64,000 bases of DNA from Cryptococcus deneoformans JEC21 (taxonomy: Eukaryota > Basidiomycota > Tremellomycetes > Tremellales > Cryptococcaceae). The translations under genes and the position numbers were made by a program. Shown here one piece after another: positions 2,240-44,066 of this stretch (the stretch's first letter is position 1; the number at the start of each line of letters is the position of its first letter). The DNA lies in assembly GCF_000091045.1 (NCBI RefSeq), contig NC_006694.1, positions 15,001-79,000 of the forward strand. The letters are read 5' to 3'. The notes below the pieces were generated by a model. It had not been told where the DNA came from. It saw nothing but the letters and a program-made list of their open reading frames with translations, and searched no databases.

Positions 2240-2759
2240 ATGGCGGGTATTGGCATGTTGGGCGTTTTTGTGGGGATTTTTTCTTTTTGTTCAAGGTCAT
2301 CCGGTGGGCGAGCTGTCTTGATTACGCGACCGAATCTAGTTTCTCGCTACTGTATACTTTACGTACCGGCTCATGCATTCTACAGACTTGCTGAGATGTT
2401 AACTGATAGCACATTATTTCATTTAGATATAATGAATCGGATCATGATAAAAACAGCACGATAGAACAAGCTCCAAACTGCAAAGGCAGCCAATCGCGTT
2501 TACCTGGCGTGAGATGGCATAAGATCACGTAAGCATGGAGCAACGGCTAGATCCGAAGTGAAGAAGTTATACGGACAAAGCCGAAGACCGAGGCTCCGAG
2601 ATTCCTTTTCGCGAATCTCGGATCGCGAGCTTTGCCTTATCAATCTCGCTTTTTGCACATCCTCCGTCTCTGGTGGCCTTTGCGATCTACCGTGATATTT
2701 CTAAACGCCTCTTCCCGACTCACTTGGAAAGTTCCCCCTTTTTTTTCCCTCCAAATAGT
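2240..2759. promoter_or_regulatory. DUS3 3' end and promoter of the D-2-hydroxyacid dehydrogenase
   Basis: No gene is supported here. The region holds the 3' UTR of DUS3 and the upstream region of the next gene. Its one clear structure is a perfect 10-bp inverted repeat, listed separately. A T-rich stretch directly precedes the ATG at 2760. Confidence 0.5.
2595..2622. repeat. Perfect 10-bp inverted repeat with 8-nt loop
   Basis: TCCGAGATTC at 2595-2604 is matched by its reverse complement GAATCTCGGA at 2613-2622. It lies about 140 bp before the ATG of the dehydrogenase gene, so it could be a palindromic protein-binding site or a hairpin in a 5' UTR. Function is unknown. Confidence 0.6.
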
Positions 2760-4561
2760 ATGACAAAATCCCTTTACTCTCTTTTCTCCATCATCTTGCT
2801 ATTCGCTGTATCGTCCTCGTTCGCCTTTGCTTCACCCCAAGCACAATATCACCAGCACGCCATGACGACCTCCCATCTCTTATCTGTGCACAATGACAGT
2901 AGCGGGCATAACCACACAGCACCATCACTCGAAACACTCATCGTCACCGTACCCGTCTCCGCTGAGAAACTCGCTGAGGTCAAGACTCACTTCAAGACAG
3001 TACATGTTTTTGACGAAGGAGAAACTGTCACGAAAGAGGCGGCGAGAGAGGTAGAGGTTTGGTACTCGAATTACTTGGGTATTCCGAAAGAGATTGAGTA
3101 TGAAGATGTACCGAACTTAAAGCTTGTTCAATTGACTAGCGGTAAGTCTCAGTCACCTTCGATTGCTCCTTCACAACGGAACTGAACTTTATTTTTGCAA
3201 ATAGCGGGCGCCAACCTCGCCCTAAACAGTCCAGTTTTGAAGAACGAAGAGGCTCGTAAGAGAATTGATATCTCCTCCGCTTCAGGTAAGTCATCTTTAT
3301 TTTGATCAAAAAGATGATTGAACCTTTGGATGTAAGCTGATAATTCTCGCCTCGAAATTACCAGGTATTCACGCCATCAGTATTCCTCAGTGGATCATCT
3401 CGCAGACTGTCAGCTGTAAATGATTCTTCTTAATCTCTGCAACATCCTCGATGGTCGATTAAATATCGGTTACTAACGACTTTGATGGATAGTATACATG
3501 CACCTTTACTTGCAAACTTTTAACCTCCGGGTAAGTCTTGATTTTTATCAATCTACTGAGCTAGGCCCATTAACGAATGTTTCCGGCATGCTATATACTT
3601 CATCTACAACAGACAAACCAGACATGGAGTCGTGATATCCCACAGCTACCTCAACTTAACGGTATAAAGCACGGTAACAGTGGTAAATCACTGTATGGAA
3701 AGACCGCTGGTCTTTTGGTATGTCCCTCTGTCCCTTCTTTCCTCGCTCCTACCTCCATATTTCGCTTTAGTTCTCATATATCTTGAACTAATGGGGGGTG
3801 GTGATAGGGCTACGGACACATTGGTCGAGAGACCGCCAGACTCCTCAAAGCATTCAACGTCAACATCATTGCTGCCAACTCGAACGGCCAGAAGCGAGGA
3901 GATGACGGATATCTTATCCCTGGTACAGGGGATGCTGATGGTACGCTTTTTTTTTCATTCCTTTTCCCCATTCCCATCTGCCTTACTTTCCATTTCTTCT
4001 TACCAGTCTAAAGTCGAGGTATTAACATTATGTTTTGTCAACAGGATCCATTCCTTCCGCATATTACTCCACTTCTGACGAAGAGTCTTTCAAGACGTTC
4101 TTGAGCAAATCAGACATCCTTATCGCGAGTTTACCTTCTACCCCTCAAACCAGATACTTGCTCAACCAGGAGCTCCTTTGTAAGTGCTTTTTCCCACTCG
4201 TTATCTTCTTTCAAATCGAGACTAAAGCTGATAATATCCTCTCCGATCTTTCGCAGCTCTGCTTCCCGAAGGCGCAGTATTCCTCAATGTAGGCCGAGGC
4301 GACCTCGTTAAATCCGAAGACCTCCTCGCAGCCCTCGCATCTGGCCCCCTCTCTGGCGTTGCCTTGGACGTTACCGACCCCGAACCCCTCCCAGACTATC
4401 ACCCATTATACTCTCACCCGCAAGTCATCATCACACCGCATACGAGCTCAAATATAGAAGGATACTTTGATGTGGGTGCGGATTTGTTGATTGAGAATGT
4501 AAGGCGGGTGAGGAAGGGAGGTAAAGCGATCAATAAGGTTGACCCAGAGAAGGGTTACTAA
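2760..4561 (+). CDS. D-isomer-specific 2-hydroxyacid dehydrogenase (glyoxylate/hydroxypyruvate reductase-like)
   Basis: NAD(P)-dependent reduction of a 2-oxoacid to a D-2-hydroxyacid. Eight exons (2760-3141, 3205-3285, 3365-3415, 3493-3530, 3613-3717, 3808-3940, 4045-4179, 4257-4561) join to 409 residues. The nucleotide-binding turn GYGHIG is followed by AANSNGQKR, with no acidic residue at the end of beta-2, which suggests NADP(H) preference (inference). The family's catalytic set is present: Arg in NVGRGDLV, Glu in DVTDPEPLP and His in ITPHTSSN. Oddity: the first ATG gives a hydrophobic, signal-peptide-like N-terminus (SLFSIILLFAVSSSFAFA), whereas these enzymes are usually cytosolic, peroxisomal or mitochondrial. 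An in-frame ATG at 2862 would skip it. Formate dehydrogenase was considered and fits less well. The substrate cannot be read from sequence. Confidence 0.88.
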
Positions 4562-33771: not shown

Positions 33772-36052
33772 CTACAACACATACCTAACCCTCTCCTCGG
33801 ACGCCTCACCCCTCGCTTCAGCCTCGGCATCCTCACGATCCATCTTGGCGTTCCCCCGCTTCAAAAAGAAGCGAAGGACAAAGCAGAACAGGATGGCGAC
33901 GGCCGCCATGACCGAGTTGGTTGCGAATGCAGTCTGGTTCCCCATATCAGTTGCAAGTTCACATGTCAAAGCAAGAGTTGGGTTGGTTGATCCCCGGGAA
34001 AAGAAGGAGAGGGAGAGGGAAAGACTTACGGTGTATCGAGGAGCATCGGTTGAAGGGTAGAGGTAGGGTGACCAGATCTGGGCAATGTTCCTTGAATTCG
34101 TTTAGTCAGCATTTGAAGTGCATAAACAAGTTTGTACCGCAAAAAAAGAATTGGGACATACCCCAAACTGTTAATGATTGCATAAGCAGCTGCTCGCTTC
34201 GCACGAGGACGAGGGAACGTTGAAGAGATCCACTGTGTCCGTCGTTGGCAAAATTAGTTTTTTTATGCCCCACTGAAAAAAAGGGGACTAGAACGGAAAT
34301 TAGAAAAGAGTGAATGTACTCACGGCAAGAGCGACGTTGTAAGATCCAAAGAGACCACCCAGCATGAGGAAAAGCGAAAAGTATCGAGGACCCGTCTTCA
34401 GAGTAGAGACGGCGATAATATAACTGATTTGACAAACAAACAAAAAGTTTAGTTGAAAAGCAAAATCTGATTTCGGATTGAAAGAACGCACCCGATCATT
34501 CCGACAGTAAGAGGGAGGGCGAGGTGGAAACATCGTTCAGGCCTTCGGTCAGATAACCTTGAGATTAAGAGAGAAAGAACGGCGGTGACAAGGTATGGAG
34601 GTGCGAGGAGCAAGAGCCTGTAAAGACTGTCAGCGAAAGAACACAAGCCCGACGAGGTTTTTCAAAGAAAATGAACACGTACGTAATGACTTTGTTAAAG
34701 CCAAAGGTTGCGATGACTGTAGGGAAAAACTGAGTCACAGCGCCGGCGGTCGTCTTGGTAATGATAACGGTGGCAAGAAGGTATAGCTACAAAACACCGT
34801 CAGCACAAGTTACACCCGCAGCCAATTTTTTTTTTTTTTGGTTGGAAAACGACCTCAGCCAAAAGAGAAGAAAGACATACCCTATAGTCACAGAGCGCGA
34901 GTTTCAAACTGTGGAACAGTCCCTCGTCATCCTCATCTCGACTTCCACCATCCCGTTCCATTCGCCAAACCGCAACAGCCTTTTCTCTGGTGCTCAGCCA
35001 TTTGGTTGTAGCAGGATAGTCTGGAAGAACAAAGATGGCGACTAGGGCAGCGAAGCCAGTAATAGCTCCCTGATATTATGGCCGAGCGTAAGCTCCTTTT
35101 GGCTAATGGAAAAAAGGTAACAAATTGTATCAACGTACCTCGAGGATGAAGAGCCATCGCCATGACTCCATACCCAGTTTGCCATCCAAACCGTTTTGCA
35201 CGCCGGCGGCAATCAAGCCGGAGAACGCTCCAGACAGCAAAGAGCCAGTGTAAAGCTAAGATAAACACGGTCAGGTCCTTTGGTCATCTTGGTCTTCAGG
35301 GAGAACGGAACTCACGAAAGCAGTTCGGTAGGCAAGCTCCTTCTTGGTATACCAAGTCGAAAGTAAAAACAAGGCTCCAGGGAAGTATGGGCTTTCAGTG
35401 AAACCGAGTAAAATACGAACTGCAAGGAGTTGGTGGTAATTCTGGACAAAACCGGTGCACAATGAAACAATCGCCCTTTAAAAACTTTTGTCAACGCCGG
35501 CGTTTGATCATATTACAAAAAATACTTACCAGACCATGACACAGACTGATAGGTAGATAGAAGGTCGGGTCTTTGAAAGGATCAAGTTTGAGGGGATCTG
35601 GCCAAGAATATAGCCAACGAAGAGCAAACTGATTGCAGAGTTAAACTGTGTGCCAACCATGCCCAGGCTTTTCTCAATACCCTGCACACGAGCCGAAGCA
35701 AGTGCGTTTCGGTCAAGGTAATTGAGGATAAGAAGAACGAATAAAGTTGGAAGAAGGGTGAAGTCAATCTAACACAGTATGGAGATTAGTACTACATCTT
35801 CAATTAATGGAAGAAAAAAAATCGACCTACCTTGCGCAAGAGTTTTCTCTCCTCGATAGCCAAGTCCTCAGGGGGCATCGAGCGGAGTAGCTCAATCTCA
35901 GCAGCGAGAGGACCATCCTGAACAGGAATATTCCCGCCACTTTTATCCTCAACATGCTCTACCGTCTCCTTGATATCCACATCACCGTATAGCTCCTTAT
36001 CGGTGACGGCATCAGAGGGAATGATCACCCCGTCTCGAGGAGTAGAAGCCAT
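33772..36052 (-). CDS. MFS permease of the anion:cation symporter (ACS) family, Dal5/TtuB-like
   Basis: Proton-coupled importer of small organic anions; relatives carry allantoate, nicotinate, tartrate or vitamins. Reads: RKIDFTLLPTLFVLLILNYLDRNALASARVQGIE, typical of the first helix and loop, NSAISLLFVGYILGQIPSNL, RPSIYLSVCVMVWAIVS, then RILLGFTESPYFPGALFLLS and TWYTKKELAYRTAFLY, the ACS hallmark. LSGAFSGLIAAGV, GMESWRWLFILEGAITG and ALVAIFVLPDYPATTKWLS follow, and in the C-half FSLFLMLGGLFGSYNVALAW and KRAAAYAIINSLGNIAQIW. About ten exons. Start is the ATG in MASTPRDGVI; an in-frame ATG at 36097 would add 15 residues. The gene is divergent from the tartrate/D-malate dehydrogenase gene, with a 1.06-kb shared promoter rich in CGGAG. 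Substrate is inferred from context only. Confidence 0.9.
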
Positions 36053-37110
36053 GACGACTGTTGTCCGATATTTGGTTCTTGGTCGAGTTAAAGTCAAGAG
36101 AAAGAAAAGATTGAAATGGCTTGGAAATAATCAAAGGGCTGATAAAGTAGTGAGAGGCAGTTATTCAAAGTGAAAAGGTTGGAAGAGTAGACCATGAGTA
36201 GCAGGAATCGGCGCACTTTAAATATTCCAAGGAGAAAAGCGATATTGGGTTGGACTGAGAGGCGAATGAGACGAGCTGGGATGGACTTTCTCCTGGACTT
36301 TGTTATGGGTTCTCCGCAAACCCCGCGGTTCCCCGCAACCTTAATCCTGAAGGAAAAAAGAGGAGGATGCCAAGTACGTAGACGGAGTGGGGCAATTCAG
36401 GACGATCAATTGATCACATGGGCGGCATAGTCTGTTGGGTAGACACTATGCAAATACGAATTTTCAATGGGTGTGTCCTTCGTTTGGAAGCACTTACAGG
36501 CAAGTCGGAAAACGAAGAAGAAGCAGCGGACAAAGTCAAAGAGAAACTACGAGAGAGAAGAATAAAAGTACCGGAGTTGCTGACTTTGTTCAACGGAGAA
36601 TCTCGGAAGCAAAAACAAGAGACCGTTACCCTCCATAATCATGAGGGAAATCCGCAATCTGCAACTCGCAAATTGACCCAAAGGGAAGATGCAAGCATAA
36701 ACCAGTGCTTCTAACCCTGGACCCCGACCTTTTGCAATACCTTGGACTTTATTCCTTCATCCTTCCTCTTGCAGAGCCGGAAGGTTACGTAATATCTCCC
36801 CATCCCCGGAGAATAATTGCGGGCATGCGGACTTGGACATTTCCCGCAGCCGGAGTTATTCTCCGTCCTCCGCTGGCACCTCACGACTCACGGTCAAGCC
36901 TTGCTGATCATGCTTGCTTTACCGGCGCATTTGCATTTTCGGAGCTTCAATGACCGAAGTCGGAGCAATGGTACGTCGTTGGCAAACGACACTCATCCGT
37001 TATCCCGGCAGCAGAGGATATATAGCCACACCTGCACCTGCCATGTTTCCCTCAAACTTCATCGATTTTCGTTGCCTTTACTCCATCAACAAATCCGCAT
37101 ATCCATAACA
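36053..37110. promoter_or_regulatory. Divergent promoter, ACS permease / tartrate dehydrogenase, with 10 CGGAG sites
   Basis: 1,058 bp. By hand count CGGAG or CTCCG occurs at 36312, 36383, 36572, 36594, 36807, 36851, 36861, 36868, 36940 and 36961. About two would be expected by chance. Sites 36851 and 36861 form a perfect palindrome, CGGAG-N5-CTCCG. Longer ORFs in this interval (such as 36418-36714) have no protein-like character. Confidence 0.6.
36807..36865. repeat. Nested inverted repeats with CGG half sites
   Basis: CGGAGAATAA (36807-36816) is matched by TTATTCTCCG (36856-36865). Inside lie TGCGGG (36818-36823) and CCCGCA (36843-36848). The right arm is itself part of CGGAGTTATTCTCCG (36851-36865). 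CGG/CCG triplets in inverted order are the usual target of Zn2Cys6 dimers. Confidence 0.65.
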
Positions 37111-38526
37111 ATGTCACCTGTTCGAGTTCCTTCTCACGGCGATGGCTGGGCTTCTACCCCCCAAACCAAGCAAGTGTACTCTATCGCTTCCATTCCTGCC
37201 GACGGTATTGGACCAGAGGTCGTCGAAGCCGCTATCACTGTGCTCAAGGCCATCGCGAAGAAACGAGGAACTTTCCAGCTCGACTTCACCAACTTTGACT
37301 GGTCTTCTGAGACTTACAAGAAGACTGGGAGATATGTGCCGGATAATCATCTCGACATCCTCCGCAAGTTTGATGCCATCCTGTGAGTCGTCTTCTCCTT
37401 GGAGTACCACTGAGATGCTGATTAAAGGTGTCAGTTTCGGTGCTGTCGGCGCTCCCGATGTCCCTGACCACATCTCCCTCTGGGGTCTCCGACTAGCTAT
37501 CTGCCAGCCTTTGCAGCAGTACGCCAATGTCCGGTGAGTTGATTGTAGCGATATTTCAAGAACTAGCACTGATAAATCCTGGCATCTCCGTAGACGGACT
37601 CGCGTTCTTCCCGGTACTGAGTCACCCCTCCGCAACTGCAAGCCTGGTCAGCTTGACTGGGTAATTGTCCGAGAGAACTCAGAGGGCGAGTACGCCGGTC
37701 ATGGTGGGAGATCCCACAATGGCTACAACCATGAAGTTGCTACCGGTATGCACTTTTCGCAAATCGCACAGTTTGAGCCTGACAATTTGATCTGAACAGA
37801 AATCTCCATCTTCACTCGTGTCGGGGTCGAGCGAATCGCACGATTTGCTTTCCAGCTCGCTCAATCTCGACCTCGCAAGAAGCTCACCTATGTCACCAAG
37901 TCCAATGCCCAACGAAATGGAATGGTTATGTGGGATGAAGTGGTCAATGAGGTTGCAAAGGAGTTCCCTGACGTGGAGCTTGACCACATGCTGGGTAAGC
38001 AGGCATCCTCACATTCAGTACCCGGTAAATAAACATTGCTGACTCTACTTCTCATTGATTAGTCGACGCTATGACTGTCCGAATGGTTCTTCACCCTGAG
38101 TCGCTCGACACCATTGTAGCCACCAACCTTCACGCCGACATTCTTTCCGACCTTGCAGCGGCTCTTGCTGGATCCATCGGTATCGCTCCCACCGCCAACC
38201 TCGACCCCTCTCGTCAAAATCCATCAAGTAAGTCACCACATTCTTATCATAAACGTCACATTACTAACCAGGGACTCCGTACAGTGTTCGAGCCTATCCA
38301 CGGGTCTGCTTTCGATATCACAGGCAAGGGAATCGCCAACCCTGTCGCAACCTTCTGGACAGCAGTGGAAATGCTCGAATGGTTGGGTGAGAAAGAAGCA
38401 GGGCAGCAACTCATGGAGGCTGTCGAAGCTGTATGTGTTGACGGGATCAAGACGAAGGACTTGGGGGGATCAGCTACCACGAAGGAAGTTACAGATGCTG
38501 TTGTCAAGAGGATTTTGCAAGGGTAA
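37111..38526 (+). CDS. Tartrate dehydrogenase / D-malate dehydrogenase (decarboxylating), TtuC/DmlA family
   Basis: Metal- and NAD-dependent beta-decarboxylating dehydrogenase. In bacteria this family oxidises (+)-tartrate to oxaloglycolate, turns meso-tartrate into D-glycerate plus CO2, and D-malate into pyruvate. Six exons (37111-37382, 37435-37533, 37594-37745, 37800-37994, 38063-38227, 38285-38526) give 374 residues, the usual length. Motifs: IPADGIGPEVVEAA, FGAVGAPDVPDHISLWG (family-specific, unlike IPMDH or IDH), RTRVLPGTESPLRNC, IVRENSEGEYAGHGGR, TYVTKSNAQRNGMVMWDE, ATNLHADILSDLAAALAGSI and the Asp-rich metal site, FEPIHGSAFDITGKGIANP. No targeting signal is obvious. It lies between the permease and the Zn2Cys6 gene. 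Tartrate versus D-malate cannot be told from sequence. Confidence 0.92.
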
Positions 38527-38989
38527 AGTAACTACTGTAGTTGTTTGAGGATTTCTTTATTTTTCGGATGTATTATGTTCACAAAATTAAGATATAAATC
38601 GTTCTCGTGGGCCCGTAGTATGTAAACCGGTTTAGTGGTTGACCGGTTTAAGGTGCCAAATGGTGCGGACAATATGAACTCCCGTCCGCTATGACCCTGT
38701 TATCACAGCTCACAGCCATAATAACCAATCTTTAGATGTCGTGCCCACCTGTCAGTCATTCGCATTCCATCAAATCATAAATAGAATCAAACAGATGTCG
38801 CAACGGTGGGGATAAGGTAGTAAGGGATGGTAACTTCCATGAATGTTACGTAATAACAGAGCCCCGAGTGGCAACTCCGTCTTCCGTCGTTCGTCGGAGC
38901 TGGTTGTTCGTTGTAGACACACAGTACTCGTACAGCGACAGCCTGTAATTCGCCTAATATACCGTCCGTTCCTGTTTGTGGTATACTCC
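38527..38989. promoter_or_regulatory. Promoter of the Zn2Cys6 gene
   Basis: 463 bp. It contains the perfect palindrome TAAACCGGTTTA (38623-38634) followed 8 nt later by ACCGGTTTA (38642-38650). Closer to the gene it has a CTCCG (38875-38879) and a CGGAG (38895-38899) facing outward with 15 nt between. All may be binding sites, including for autoregulation. Confidence 0.55.
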
Positions 38990-41900
38990 ATGTCTCCCCC
39001 TCCCACCCGTGCACGCCAATCTTCTGAATCTGAACCGAGCAGTGCTAACAAACGGGCACGCATCACTCGACATGCTTGCGAGCGATGCAGGGCAGGCAAA
39101 AAGAAATGTGACGGTCAGCTTGTGAGTGTTTTGTAATTTAAACAAGTAGTCTAGCCATTGACTTACTCATTCTGAGAATAGCCTTGCTCGGCCTGTACAC
39201 TGTCCAAAAAAGGTGCGCTCCCTTCCATGGCTTTTTCTGCTAGAAATGTCTCCGTAATGTAGCGGTCGTAAATGAAGGATGATCAGCTGACCGATCTATT
39301 GGGTAGAATGCATTTTTTCAGCCCAAAGACGAAGACTTAGGATCCCGGTTCCTAATCTCATCGATAACCCTACTAATTCTTCCACACCTTCTCGCCATAT
39401 TCGTGATCAAGGACAGTATCAATCTCCTATAATGTTCCCCTCAATTGCCAGTTCTTCCGAAAGCTATGAGCGACAGTCACGATACAATTCGCCTTCACGA
39501 CAGCACACCGCGGGACATGATGGCTCACATACCAACGATATGTCTATGGGCATAGCGGTCGAGGTTGAAGGAGCGTCGGAGGTTCGTGCCCGCGACCACG
39601 ATCGAGAAGATGGACGCGAGGACAGACAAGGTCACGAAGTACACAGCCAAAATCATGAACATACGCTAGCCCGTATAGCACACGTTATGGCGAATGGGAC
39701 TGTTTCCAGATATCCGTCTCCAGGTTTAACAATACTTTCTCCTGCAGATGGCAGGCCGATTGTGGCTAGGGAAAGTAAGCTGAACCTTCATCCATTGTCT
39801 TAGAAGAGGGACTGACGAGCAGGAACTTTAGCAGATATCTCGGCCAAGGGTGATTTGCTTGACAGGCTTCATCGCCACCTCACAGTGGTGTTTTCTTTAC
39901 GATCTTTCCCCAAAGGCCATTTAGGCGAAGAATTGAAAGATGAGAATGACAACAAAACAAGGGGGGCAGGCGAACTATTCTTTCTCCCCTCTTGCGAGGA
40001 CGGCAAAGCATACATAAGATGCTACTTTGAACACGCGAGTTTTATTCTGTTCGCGAATCAAGCTTATAAAGCTGATACTTGCCTCTTTTGACAGGCAACT
40101 TCAACGTACAGATATTTAGATCGACGGAATATCGAGCAACTGACAGATGACTTTTACGCATCGAATGGGTCCCTGTCCCAGAAGGACGATGTGGTGCTCC
40201 TACTGCTGCTGATGGCTATTGGGTGAGTACCATAGGTATCTCGTAGCTTCAGGCTGAAAATGCCGGATCTGATCAAAGTTTGTCAAAACAGATGTCTGTG
40301 GACTCCTTCATGGACTGGGGCAGACCCACAAATGATGACCCAAAAAGCGTAAGCGAATATTTGGATCAGATGAACCATGATGGATTGATGATGGATCACT
40401 CAGTCTTCAATTACTCCGAGCCGCTCAGCGGCAACTGGAGACTTTATCCCTATCCCAGCCCCGATTACGAATGGTACAAGTTCATATTGCACTAGTGAGT
40501 TTTCCTACAGTTGCATGATGTGTGGAGGAACGTGTTACTAACGTTCATACCATTTCTTTTTCGACCAGTGTCATCTCTATCTCGGAATGTCCCATTTTCG
40601 CTCAGCCTGGCTTGCCTTTGGTACCGCCGCTCGACTTAGTCAGCTTCTCAGGTTACATCGCAAGAGCCCCGATGGTACTCCCCAAGAATTGGATGAACCG
40701 CGTCGACAGGCGTTTTGGAGCGGCTACATGATGGATAGGTGAGCGTCAAGTCAATTATCCAATGGTTCGGGTGTTTTAACATGTTATTCAAGATATTTGT
40801 CGCTAGTACTTGGATGTCCGGTGATTTACGATGAGAGGGACATAACACAACGCTTTCCCAGCTATCCGGACAGCGGAGACCATTCGGTTGATACGCAGGA
40901 TGAGGCCCAACGTTTGGCTGGATCAATAGCACATATCAAGTGAGTCGTTCAGCTACAACGTTGCCTGATTCTCATGGCATTCTTCTCTGTTATCCCATAA
41001 TTAGACTGTCGCAAATTTTGGGCCATGCTCTCCGAAAACTCCAATCACCAGGTGAACTATCAGATCTGGAACGTTCCCTAGCCGTACAGTCTCTGAATCA
41101 AGAACTCGACCGCTGGTTAGCTGAAACACCTCGCTTTTTCCACCCCGATGGGCCTGATACATACGACCTCGGTCCATTTGCTAGCGTACCGCCATTCTTC
41201 CAACGGTATGCCCCCTTTGCATTCTATACCGAAATCTATAAAAGTCCCAACTGACCAGTATTGGCTATTATCACGGGTTTATAGCCAGCAACAGATTGTA
41301 CGCTCAGCGTATCACTTTATTAATCTTTTTATCCATCGCTCTTTCCTACTCGATCAATTCATCAACCGTATCCCCGCCAGTCAACCCCTCCCACCTCTTA
41401 CTGTCATGTCGCCGGAGGTTACCGTATGCGTCGAGTCAGCAATCAGTATTGCCAAATCCGTCTCGAAAATGAGGGACAGTCCAGGTGCCAAAGGAACGTT
41501 CTGGGTGAGTACCGCTTCGGGATATTGCGCATCTTTGTATCCCTGCTAACTGGCAGTTTATGGTAAACTAGAATTCTGCATACTTTTGCTTTGCAAGTCT
41601 CACGGTGCTTTTAGTCTATCTAATGGTATACGAAGATGCCCCAAGACGGGCAGAAATCGAGAGTATGATTGAAGCGGCGATGGAAGGGCATATTCAACTT
41701 ACTGGGTCAACGAGGAGGGAACGCGAACAAATCCTTGAAGTGAGTGAGCTTGTCAGAGTTGAAAATTCTGTCCTTTCTATTTATTTCTTTATCATGATCA
41801 TACTTTATACTCACAGCTGAGAGCAGGAATCAAAACGTATATCAGAACTACTCCGCCGCCGCCAAGAAGAACCTGAGGCAGCTGGCTCTAAATCTCAATA

Positions 41901-42172
41901 CATACCGCCGCCGTGGCCAGGGATGGAGGATCCTTTCCTTGGGAGGTAAGTCTAGCCCGTATCACCGTTGCTTATCTGCAAGGAAAATGTCGAAGCTGAC
42001 GCCTTGCTCTTCGTTTACCAGTGCGCCTAATTGGGATCCCCTATGGCAGAATACTCTTGACATGCTTGGCTTGGACACAAGTATGGGCTTGGGTTTGCCA
42101 TTGGGAATGGGCATGATTGAGGAGGGAGGAGTCAATGCGGCTACAAGTTCTGGTGCTTTTGGATTTTTATGA
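38990..42172 (+). CDS. Zn(II)2Cys6 transcription factor with fungal-specific middle domain
   Basis: Nuclear DNA-binding regulator. The binuclear zinc cluster is complete after joining the first three exons (38990-39121, 39182-39212, from 39307): CERCRAGKKKCDGQLPCSAC then TLSKKEC, i.e. C-x2-C-x6-C-x5-C-x2-C-x6-C. A basic linker (RRRLRIP) follows. The middle homology region is seen in DRLHRHLT, CHLYLGMSHFRSAWLAFGTA, RLLRLHRKSPDGTP, EPRRQAFWSGYMMDRYLSL, LGCPVIYDERDITQRFPSY, and later SAYHFINLFIHRSFLL. The C-terminus is Gly/Met-rich (DMLGLDTSMGLGLPLGMGM). About a dozen introns. It sits within the tartrate/glycerate block, with CGGAG sites in its own promoter, so it is the likely local regulator (inference). 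Its stop is 59 bp from the convergent kinase gene. Confidence 0.9.
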
Positions 42173-42231
42173 AGGATTTTATGACTTTATAATACACTAT
42201 AATACATTTATATAAATTGCATGTATGATTT

Positions 42232-43401
42232 TCAGAAGCTTTCTGTGCCAACAATTTCTCGTTGTATGTTCACAATGAAACGAAGCCCTTTGCCGCTCCA
42301 TGATGAGGTCTCCTTATCAATTCCATCTTGAAACAGTTCGTAGCTGGGCATATACCTATCGTCAATATTATATCAGTAAAACTTGATACTCCAAACTGGG
42401 CAATGGACTCACCGGTTAATGAAATGTCGGACCTGCTCATCAGTCATTCCGTTACCTCCATTCTTCGCCTTCATATTGTGTTCTTGCTGTGAGACCTTTA
42501 ATTTTAGCGCCTCATTGTAATCCAAACCTTTGCCAGGCAATTGAAGACAATAAAACTTACCTGAAGTCTCCAAGACCATACATAAGATAGATCCAACGGT
42601 CGGATTTGCACAAAACAATCAATTTGATCCCAAAGTACTTCGTACTGCCTCAGATTTTGGTTTATACTGTGTAATGTTGATCTCGAATACAATAAAATGG
42701 TAGGCATAACCCGAGCTGGGTCGTTAAGAGAAGAAGAGGGCCATTGTCGTCCGGCTTCAGCGTATCTCTCTTCTAGTTTGTCATTTGATAACGGCCCGAA
42801 CCCGTTCATCCACCCTTCAAATATGACCACATCAATAGGTCCTTGCACTTCTACTACCTCCTTTGACCGGTCTCCTTCGCCCTTGAAAAGAGATTTGTCG
42901 TATATGGGCAGTTGAAGGCTTTGGCCCTTAGTTACAGTCGGAGACTTGGCACTGACGCGGTCATTGATAGATTTCAACTTTGCCAGACACTGTTCCAGAA
43001 TCGGTAAATCATGAGTGCCCGCGGGACCACGACCGCTGAGGAGGGGATTATCAGGCTCTGATTGTGCCAGTTTGACCTGGTCGGAATGGGTGAGGTAAAA
43101 GTCGTCCAAAGACATGGTAGCGAGACGCAGATCATAATGTTTTTCCAGATAGGCTGGCAATAGACCAGTTAGGTGTGATTTGCCTGGGTGAAAGGTACCA
43201 GAGTGATCAGCGGCAAGGTCTAATATGTACAAAAGAAGCGGAATACCTACCTGCACCTTGAGGGCCTTGTACACCTACAATAAGAGGAGGACACACTGTT
43301 TCTTTATTCCATGAACTCCTGTGACGAGCGAGCTGTGACAGGACAAAAGCGGCTGTCTGTTGGACCATTACTCCACCGGGGATCTGTGCTGTAGCAGTCA
43401 T
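42232..43401 (-). CDS. D-glycerate 3-kinase (GLYK / Tda10 family)
   Basis: Phosphorylates D-glycerate to 3-phosphoglycerate with ATP. Exons 43250-43401, 42561-43183, then two shorter ones ending at 42232. P-loop: IVGVQGPQGAGKSHLTG, split by the first intron. Then DLRLATMSLDDFYLTHSDQ (family motif with conserved Asp pair), NPLLSGRGPAGTHDL, LPIYDKSLFKGEGDR, DVVIFEGWMNGFGPL and QIDCFVQIRPLDLSYVWSWR, all in the order found in plant GLYK and yeast Tda10. The last exons read GMTDEQVRHFINRYMPSYELF. The first ATG I use is 43401; the frame stays open to an ATG at 43527, so a 42-residue extension is possible. The upstream region has five CGGAG/CTCCG sites. In context it would take the D-glycerate made by the tartrate dehydrogenase. 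Confidence 0.9.
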
Positions 43402-44066
43402 AATGCCTTGTGTTGTAAATGTATACTTGGCTTCACTGATGAAGATGATCGTTCGTTCAAGTGATTGTTGACAACTGAGAAGATGCTGTTTACTATGCTG
43501 TTTACTTTCAATAGATGCCATACACATTAGTTACTGGATATTTTATTTGGTGCCGGCCGACGGCCGGCGGAGCTGTCGTAAGTAAACGGATCTTGATCTC
43601 CGCAATCAACGCGGAGACCGGAGATTCATTCCCTCACACGCCACAACTCCGTTCCTCCTTTCCGGCATCCGCACGACGGTCTCCTTCCAGTCTCCCTCCA
43701 CCTTCTACATTCTTTTTATTTTTATTTTTTATTTTTCGGCTGAAATCGCTCTCGTTTGAAAAGGTTGAAGGGCCGTTCCACAAGCACGAGTAAGGGTCTG
43801 CCCGCCAGCTTTGAGGCCTCTTATGCCAAGTGAATGTCAAAAAAATGGTCCCCATAATGATATATTGGGTCAAGGACGACATATTCATCAAAAGCACTTT
43901 TTTGTAAATAAAGGCATGAGAATGTTGAGGCTTTTGTAACAAAAGATTGAATTGAACTATGGGGGATGGTGATACAAATGAGGACTGACCTGGAATCCCG
44001 TTAAGATAAAAGAGGTCAGGTGATTGATAGATAAAGATGAGATAAGGGGCAAAAAGTAAAAAGCTG
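43402..44066. promoter_or_regulatory. Promoter region of the glycerate kinase, CGGAG-rich
   Basis: 665 bp upstream of the kinase (its transcript runs leftward). CGGAG or CTCCG at 43568, 43598, 43612, 43619 and 43647, five sites in about 85 bp. A 17-bp GC palindrome abuts the first. The rest, up to the tRNA, is AT-rich with no gene. Confidence 0.55.
43552..43568. repeat. 17-bp palindrome GCCGGCCG-A-CGGCCGGC
   Basis: Two perfect 8-bp arms around a central A, about 150-167 bp upstream of the kinase ATG at 43401, directly next to CGGAG at 43568. GC-rich in an AT-rich setting, with several CGG triplets. Confidence 0.7.

What the first reader, a model, noticed from the sequence alone, without database searches (positions are those of the whole stretch)
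33772..43401. Candidate tartrate/glycerate utilisation gene cluster with its own regulator
Four adjacent genes fit one pathway. An ACS-family permease (the MFS branch that holds bacterial tartrate transporter TtuB) could import the acid. A TtuC/DmlA-family dehydrogenase turns meso-tartrate into D-glycerate in bacteria, or (+)-tartrate into oxaloglycolate. A D-glycerate 3-kinase makes 3-phosphoglycerate. A Zn2Cys6 factor sits among them. The permease and dehydrogenase share one promoter; the regulator and kinase converge with 59 bp between stops. Bacterial tartrate operons join a permease, TtuC-type dehydrogenase, glycerate-forming steps and a regulator, so this would be a eukaryotic counterpart. 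The window's neighbours are unrelated housekeeping genes, which makes the grouping stand out. The hydroxypyruvate reductase-like gene at 2760 might add a step, but it lies 30 kb away. D-malate or another hydroxyacid is also possible.
Basis: partly seen in the sequence, partly recalled or inferred. Interest (0 to 1): 0.82.

Follow-up and report, generated by a model that had tools for sequence, protein, structure and literature searches.

The report
Fungal tartrate-to-glycerate gene cluster
Four neighbouring genes in a Cryptococcus yeast (an importer, a tartrate dehydrogenase, a glycerate kinase and a regulator) look like a fungal version of the tartrate-eating operons of grapevine bacteria, rebuilt partly from unrelated parts; this is predicted from sequence and has not been tested in cells.

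Summary
In detail: four intact spliced genes at the stated coordinates. The dehydrogenase passes the NCBIfam tartrate dehydrogenase cut-off and is 70% identical to that of the Allorhizobium ampelinum pAtS4c operon LysR-MFS-dehydrogenase-glycerate kinase-pyruvate kinase. It belongs to a sharply separate subfamily (Arg110, usually Cys114; classical enzymes have Arg114). A glycerate kinase lies near 8 of 33 bacterial subfamily loci but 1 of 46 classical ones. The kinase matches PDB 6ckg, 'D-glycerate 3-kinase', and is dissimilar to the bacterial operon's kinase; the regulator is Zn2Cys6, not LysR. So it is a functional counterpart, not a homologous operon. Kinase and regulator are adjacent in 4 of 4 testable Cryptococcus/Kwoniella assemblies, but 0 of 2 Microbotryomycetes. 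Beyond the finding: dehydrogenase and kinase group with Microbotryomycetes, not other Tremellomycetes, and named strong regulator relatives occur only in those two groups: transfer or selective retention. A CGGAG promoter motif is a weak lead. Substrate is inferred; no growth or enzyme data.

The parts
33772..36052 (-). ACS-family MFS permease, 11 exons, 516 aa; predicted organic-acid importer
   Evidence: Spliced model; Pfam MFS_1; TIGR00893 200 bits, below its 395 cut-off; nearest solved relative 'D-galactonate transport' 6e9n, E 1.3e-12; 29% identity to the pAtS4c operon permease
36053..37110 (.). Divergent intergenic region of permease and dehydrogenase with 10 CGGAG/CTCCG sites
   Evidence: 10 sites in 1058 bp; no equal-length stretch in the window outside 33772-43901 or in 25 other genome loci already held reached 10 (maximum 6); chosen after the fact,
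37111..38526 (+). Tartrate dehydrogenase, TtuC (Arg110/Cys114) subfamily, 6 exons, 374 aa
   Evidence: TIGR02089 547 bits, cut-off 470; 70% identity over 349 aa to the pAtS4c tartrate dehydrogenase; subfamily residues
38990..42172 (+). Zn2Cys6 transcription factor, 14 exons, 761 aa; CX2CX6CX5CX2CX6C read from the translation
   Evidence: Model; Zn_clus and Fungal_trans; strong relatives limited to few lineages
42232..43401 (-). Class III D-glycerate 3-kinase, 4 exons, 323 aa
   Evidence: Model; 660 bits to PDB 6ckg 'D-glycerate 3-kinase' and 155 bits to 7xpc 'D-glycerate-3-kinase (GLYK)'
43402..43900 (-). Kinase upstream region with 5 CGGAG/CTCCG sites
   Evidence: 5 in 499 bp, maximum elsewhere 4

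Best explanation
A small primary-metabolic gene cluster for using tartrate (L(+)- and/or meso-tartrate, possibly a close C4 hydroxy-dicarboxylate). The ACS permease imports the acid. The TtuC-type dehydrogenase oxidises and/or decarboxylates it with NAD towards D-glycerate (directly from meso-tartrate, or through oxaloglycolate and hydroxypyruvate, which would need a reductase from outside the cluster). The class III kinase makes 3-phosphoglycerate, which enters glycolysis and gluconeogenesis. The Zn2Cys6 factor switches the structural genes on, perhaps through CGG-type sites. Shown: intact genes, families, linkage in near relatives, dehydrogenase subfamily and its bacterial operon context. 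Inferred: substrate, direction, regulation.
For: Models. TIGR02089 above cut-off. 70% identity to the dehydrogenase of the pAtS4c operon annotated LysR, MFS, tartrate dehydrogenase, glycerate kinase, pyruvate kinase; PMC9219206 (passages read) locates the tartrate-utilisation region of strain S4 on pAtS4c. Same gene order on A. vitis CG78 and Paracoccus yeei plasmids, and next to L(+)-tartrate dehydratase ttdAB on a Raoultella plasmid (4 regions opened of 60 listed hits). A glycerate kinase near 8 of 33 subfamily loci against 1 of 46 classical loci, Fisher p 0.003. Kinase-regulator adjacency in 4 of 4 testable Cryptococcus/Kwoniella assemblies. Permease keeps the Asp-Arg and Arg...Glu residues aligned in the D-galactonate transporter (their role in binding is recalled).
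Against: No growth, expression or enzyme data for any of the four genes. UniRef names many of the fungal dehydrogenases 'D-malate dehydrogenase (decarboxylating)'. 25 of 33 bacterial subfamily loci do not show the searched glycerate kinases in the fetched flanks (up to 6 kb; some flanks are shorter), an ACS permease is not significantly more frequent there (5 of 33 against 2 of 46), and the loci are not phylogenetically independent. Kinase and regulator are not adjacent in Pseudohyphozyma or Rhodotorula graminis. The permease is only 29% identical to the bacterial one and its fungal family is broad. The genome holds a second glycerate-kinase-like gene elsewhere, so the clustered one need not be essential. 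The motif is not unusual once all 5-mers are considered.
Confidence: 0.72

Rival explanations
1. The cluster serves another acid: D-malate, D-glycerate itself or a related sugar acid; the dehydrogenase handles D-malate to pyruvate and the kinase handles glycerate from a separate source.
For: UniRef label 'D-malate dehydrogenase (decarboxylating)' on many fungal relatives; classical members of the family are known to take D-malate (recalled); 4-hydroxyphenylacetate and galactonate permeases are near in the ACS family.
Against: D-malate to pyruvate would need no glycerate kinase. The subfamily differs from the classical one at the first substrate-site arginine and is the one found in the four plasmid tartrate loci opened.
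Confidence: 0.18
2. The four genes are neighbours by drift in a subtelomere-near region and do not form one pathway.
For: The region lies about 49-58 kb from the start of its contig (coordinates); PMC8022950 (abstract and passages) reports transporters and transcription factors enriched in Cryptococcus subtelomeric regions.
Against: Linkage retained in Cryptococcus and the K. heveanensis clade; a dehydrogenase-kinase-permease-regulator set that matches bacterial operons.
Confidence: 0.1

Closest known systems
Agrobacterium vitis / Allorhizobium tartrate-utilisation (ttuABCDE, TAR) operons
   Same: Regulator, MFS permease, tartrate dehydrogenase of the same subfamily (70% identical), glycerate kinase
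   Different: LysR instead of Zn2Cys6 regulator; the operon's glycerate kinase has no BLAST similarity to the fungal one (PMC2063504 passages, assign A. vitis TtuD to class II and fungal enzymes to class III); pyruvate kinase present in the bacterial operon only; separate spliced genes, not an operon
C. neoformans MGC-like cluster CNAG_04468-04473 / CNI00840-00890 (PMC8022950, figure legend read)
   Same: Putative tartrate dehydrogenase with MFS transporter and Zn2Cys6 factor on the same chromosome
   Different: Its dehydrogenase corresponds to the contig 9, 221-222 kb paralogue (my inference from position), which is the classical Arg114 type; other enzymes differ; that cluster is absent in C. 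deuterogattii R265, whereas a C. deuterogattii strain has the dehydrogenase described here (P0002)
Tartrate dehydrogenase/decarboxylase of PDB 3flk (Pseudomonas putida, species recalled)
   Same: Beta-decarboxylating dehydrogenase family; best solved match, 330 bits
   Different: Leu at the 110-equivalent and Arg at the 114-equivalent position
D-glycerate 3-kinase GLYK (plants, fungi; class III)
   Same: Clear sequence relatives in PDB
   Different: Here a lineage distinct from the second, apparently native Cryptococcus copy on contig 2

Membership tests
Tartrate dehydrogenase TIGR02089 (TTC) | Score above the curated cut-off of 470.4 bits | tested here: met
   547.1 bits over residues 21-371
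TtuC (Arg110/Cys114) subfamily | GLRLxICQ with Arg at 110 and Cys (Thr in some) at 114 | tested here: met
   Arg110 in 121 of 121 fungal rows, Cys114 in 117 of 121; among 80 bacterial and archaeal loci 31 R/C, 2 R/T, 46 with Arg114, 1 unreadable; the 4 plasmid loci opened, two of them A. vitis group, are R/C
Tartrate dehydrogenase | Catalyses NAD-dependent oxidation of tartrate | not testable with these tools
   Needs enzyme assay
ttu/TAR operon | ACS/MFS permease beside the dehydrogenase | tested here: met
   Divergent neighbour; 29% identity, E 1e-44 for the pair, to the pAtS4c permease
ttu/TAR operon | Homologous glycerate kinase TtuD (MOFRL, class II) | tested here: not met
   No similarity of the pAtS4c kinase to the C. 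neoformans orthologue P0121; a class III kinase stands here
ttu/TAR operon | LysR regulator TtuA | tested here: not met
   Zn_clus + Fungal_trans instead
Class III D-glycerate 3-kinase | Homology to characterised GLYK | tested here: met
   7xpc GLYK E 3e-44, 6ckg E 5e-198; activity not tested
Fungal primary metabolic gene cluster | Transporter, enzymes and transcription factor linked, linkage conserved | tested here: met
   Kinase-regulator tags consecutive in 4 of 4 Cryptococcus/Kwoniella assemblies with both tags listed, 0 of 2 Microbotryomycetes; dehydrogenase on same-length contigs in 4 cases; permease linkage in relatives not tested
Fungal primary metabolic gene cluster | Co-regulation by the embedded factor | tested here: inconclusive
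   CGGAG enriched (17 against 4.0 expected) but some 5-mer is as extreme in 65 and 157 of 1000 controls

The most novel reading that the evidence does not exclude
The cluster is a eukaryotic re-invention of the bacterial tartrate operon: a bacterial-type TtuC that entered fungi once, joined with a fungal class III kinase and a fungal Zn2Cys6 regulator, and carried between distant basidiomycete groups (Microbotryomycetes and the ancestor of Cryptococcus plus the K. heveanensis clade), where the linked form is now known. Dehydrogenase and kinase both reject grouping with other Tremellomycetes, and named strong relatives of the regulator were found only in the same two groups. Selective retention of ancient copies is the alternative.
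Probability: 0.4. Interest if true: 0.72.

Novelty: new variant of a known kind. Interest (0 to 1): 0.62.

Why it matters
It would give a testable tartrate-catabolic cluster for a eukaryote and a candidate ligand-responsive regulator, in a genus that includes major human pathogens of plant and soil origin. It separates TtuC enzymes from their classical relatives by two residues, which could correct many electronic annotations, and it is a clear case of the same pathway logic assembled from unrelated kinases and regulators. The listings of paper searches showed me no description of this four-gene set; they cover open-licence papers only, and I read passages of four of the listed papers.

Tried and rejected
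A first automatic gene finder merged genes because introns were too cheap; a stricter version plus hand reading replaced it. A first regulator model started one base off and was mended by re-reading the start codon. My first kinase model was 4 residues short; the splice site was re-chosen by reading the window DNA beside the PDB 6ckg alignment.

CGGAG as a proven regulator site: rejected as proof. It is the top 5-mer of 512, and 0 of 1000 shuffles and 0 of 1000 random triples reach 17 CGGAG, but any 5-mer as extreme occurs in 157 of 1000 Markov shuffles and 65 of 1000 random triples; the motif was also noticed by eye first, and the regulator's own promoter has only 2 sites, which is ordinary.

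Transfer of the cluster as one unit from Microbotryomycetes: not supported. Dehydrogenase and kinase lie on contigs of different listed length in Pseudohyphozyma, Meredithblackwellia, R. kratochvilovae, R. paludigena, Rhodosporidiobolus ruineniae and Rhodotorula sp. JG-1b, 0 of 6 linked (the listed length is that of the longest contig in a 90% cluster, so this is rough). Kinase and regulator are not adjacent in Pseudohyphozyma or R. graminis. Direction is open: for the kinase, Microbotryomycetes as one clade is not rejected (p 0.43), and support for the joint dehydrogenase clade is 90/86 or 79/86.

A search for IPMDH Arg94/Arg104 literature returned nothing useful, so the role of the Arg114-equivalent in substrate binding is recalled knowledge. 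The permease could not be placed among fungal relatives because the three protein searches went to the other genes. The pathway link of the 2-hydroxyacid dehydrogenase near 2562-4561 was not followed. An earlier count said all 121 fungal rows have C114; one search shows 117 of 121. A bacterial locus whose match is broken in the compared segment (L078) was left out of both groups.
Full report
What is there. The window is bases 15001-79000 of contig 9 in a 14-contig, 19.05 Mb genome; close protein matches are Cryptococcus, and I recognise it as C. deneoformans JEC21 from recall. Four genes occupy 33772-43401: an MFS permease (-), a dehydrogenase (+), a Zn2Cys6 regulator (+) and a kinase (-). All splice into intact proteins of 516, 374, 761 and 323 residues. 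Gaps are 1058, 463 and 59 bp. Of five flanking genes scanned, four are unrelated (eIF2-alpha, enoyl-CoA hydratase, GH16, Gaa1) and one has no Pfam hit.

What the parts are. Pfam gives MFS_1, Iso_dh and Zn_clus plus Fungal_trans, and nothing for the kinase. The dehydrogenase scores 547 bits on NCBIfam tartrate dehydrogenase, cut-off 470, and PDB 3flk, 'Tartrate dehydrogenase/decarboxylase', is its best solved match. The kinase matches PDB 6ckg, deposited as D-glycerate 3-kinase, from end to end (660 bits), and a GLYK structure 7xpc. The permease is an ACS-family member: TIGR00893 below cut-off, and D-galactonate transporter 6e9n in the PDB.

The dehydrogenase belongs to a distinct subfamily. 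Aligned to 3flk, to isopropylmalate dehydrogenase 3u1h and to the genome's own paralogue at contig 9, 221-222 kb, the conserved Arg at position 114 is Cys, and an Arg stands one helical turn earlier, at 110. Among 121 fungal rows (own plus the 120 listed of 7999 hits) Arg110 is in 121 and Cys114 in 117. The first two sets are 55-71% identical to the query, the 46 are 45-53%. That Arg114 is a substrate-binding residue in the family is recalled.

The subfamily lives in tartrate operons. 713 plasmid records hold a relative; among the 60 listed, most that carry an annotation call it tartrate dehydrogenase, including A. vitis and Allorhizobium ampelinum S4 pAtS4c. I opened four. On pAtS4c the order is LysR, MFS, tartrate dehydrogenase, glycerate kinase, pyruvate kinase; A. 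vitis CG78 and Paracoccus yeei show the same. A Raoultella plasmid has L(+)-tartrate dehydratase subunits, an MFS and a LysR beside dehydrogenase and glycerate kinase. All four are R/C type. PMC9219206 (passages) names pAtS4c as the carrier of the S4 tartrate system. Among the genome loci, a glycerate kinase lies in the fetched flanks (up to 6 kb) of 8 of 33 R/C-T loci and 1 of 46 Arg114 loci (Fisher p 0.003), a pyruvate kinase in 5 of 33 against 0 of 46 (p 0.011), a TRAP transporter in 5 of 33 against 0 of 46; an ACS permease does not differ significantly, 5 of 33 against 2 of 46. The queries for these counts came from R/C loci and the loci are related, so the p-values are optimistic.

Same logic, different parts. 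The fungal dehydrogenase is 70% identical to the pAtS4c enzyme over 349 residues and the permeases 29%, but the kinases share nothing. The kinase of one related bacterial locus (L048) has the DUF4147 and MOFRL domains. PMC2063504 (passages) describes three unrelated glycerate kinase classes, assigns A. vitis TtuD to class II with predicted 2-phosphoglycerate formation, and a fungal (Neurospora) enzyme to class III forming 3-phosphoglycerate. The regulators are LysR and Zn2Cys6. So this is a functional counterpart, not a transferred operon.

Conservation. From names and tags in the protein lists, kinase and regulator are consecutive in DSM 104548, DSM 104549, CBS 6097 and CBS 9459, and not in Pseudohyphozyma bogoriensis or Rhodotorula graminis: 4 of 6 assemblies with both tags shown, 4 of 4 in Cryptococcus/Kwoniella. 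Dehydrogenase plus kinase or regulator share a listed contig length in K. heveanensis CBS 569 and BCC8398, C. amylolentus and DSM 104548. The regulator search gave 22 hits, of which 20 are strong: Cryptococcus, the K. heveanensis clade, Pseudohyphozyma, Rhodotorula graminis and three unnamed records; only the 7986 best word-sharing candidates were scored, so distant relatives may be missed.

History. In trees, the dehydrogenase and the kinase of Cryptococcus plus the K. heveanensis clade group with Microbotryomycetes. Holding them together with other Tremellomycetes is rejected: kinase p 0.008, against 4 rows; dehydrogenase log-likelihood 116 worse, against 8 rows. These groups were named after seeing the similarity lists. 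The rows were a selection: 46 and 43 of 120 listed dehydrogenases and 47 of 120 listed kinases, plus own sequences. Cryptococcus keeps a second kinase on contig 2 that groups with Kwoniella sp. DSM 27419 and Naematelia (98/91), which suggests that the clustered copy is the added one. Nesting inside Microbotryomycetes is not resolved (kinase p 0.43). The 23 fungal dehydrogenases sampled form one clade (100/99) inside the bacterial R/C group, though that tree carried a long-branch warning at its base; this is consistent with a single entry from bacteria. PMC11185503 (passages) reports a different transferred gene in Cryptococcus; its main text holds neither 'tartrate' nor 'glycerate'.

Regulation. 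CGGAG is the most enriched of 512 5-mers in the three promoters, 17 against 4.0: 10 in the divergent region, 5 before the kinase, 2 before the regulator. No equal-length stretch in the rest of the window or in 25 other loci reached 10 or 5 respectively. Corrected for looking at all 5-mers, the chance level is 0.065 to 0.16. It is a lead that fits Zn2Cys6 preference for CGG (recalled), no more.

Mechanism. Import by the permease; oxidation and/or decarboxylation by the dehydrogenase; D-glycerate to 3-phosphoglycerate by the kinase. If the substrate is L(+)-tartrate, a hydroxypyruvate reductase is needed from elsewhere; the 2-hydroxyacid dehydrogenase near 2562-4561 is one candidate, untested. 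Because the fungal kinase should make 3-phosphoglycerate, no dedicated pyruvate kinase would be required. Substrate, regulation and phenotype are inference.

Known neighbours. PMC8022950 (abstract and passages) describes another Cryptococcus cluster with a putative tartrate dehydrogenase on the same chromosome and an enrichment of transporters and factors near chromosome ends; the four-gene set here was not among the passages I saw, and I did not see its supplements.

Noticed in passing
L043 (contig 2, about 390.8-392.5 kb): A second glycerate-kinase-like gene in the same genome is predicted in one frame with a C-terminal extension that reminded me of coronin; Pfam finds no family in it. The P-loop region of my model looks imperfect, so it may be a model error.
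   Followed up: partly
L042 (contig 9, about 221-222.7 kb): The tartrate-dehydrogenase paralogue of the published CNI00840-00890 cluster (identified by position) is of the classical Arg114 type, so the two clusters on one chromosome carry enzymes of different subfamilies and perhaps different substrates.
   Followed up: partly
P0251 (C. deuterogattii LA55): The predicted regulator of C. deuterogattii lacks several segments conserved elsewhere, including half of the zinc cluster; either a poor annotation or a decayed gene in that RNAi-deficient lineage.
   Followed up: partly
Fungal hits P0001-P0120: UniRef labels many of these TtuC-subfamily proteins 'D-malate dehydrogenase (decarboxylating)' while NCBI calls many 'tartrate dehydrogenase'; the two-residue split suggests that one set of names is wrong.
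   Followed up: partly
window 2562-4561: Pieces of a spliced D-2-hydroxyacid dehydrogenase-like gene (ORFs; only 4235-4561 was scanned); it could supply hydroxypyruvate reduction but is 30 kb from the cluster.
   Followed up: partly
L064 4070-7998: One bacterial R/C-type locus has an aldehyde dehydrogenase upstream and a 3-hydroxyisobutyrate-dehydrogenase-type gene directly downstream, possibly a tartronate semialdehyde reductase and so another glycerate-forming step.
   Followed up: no
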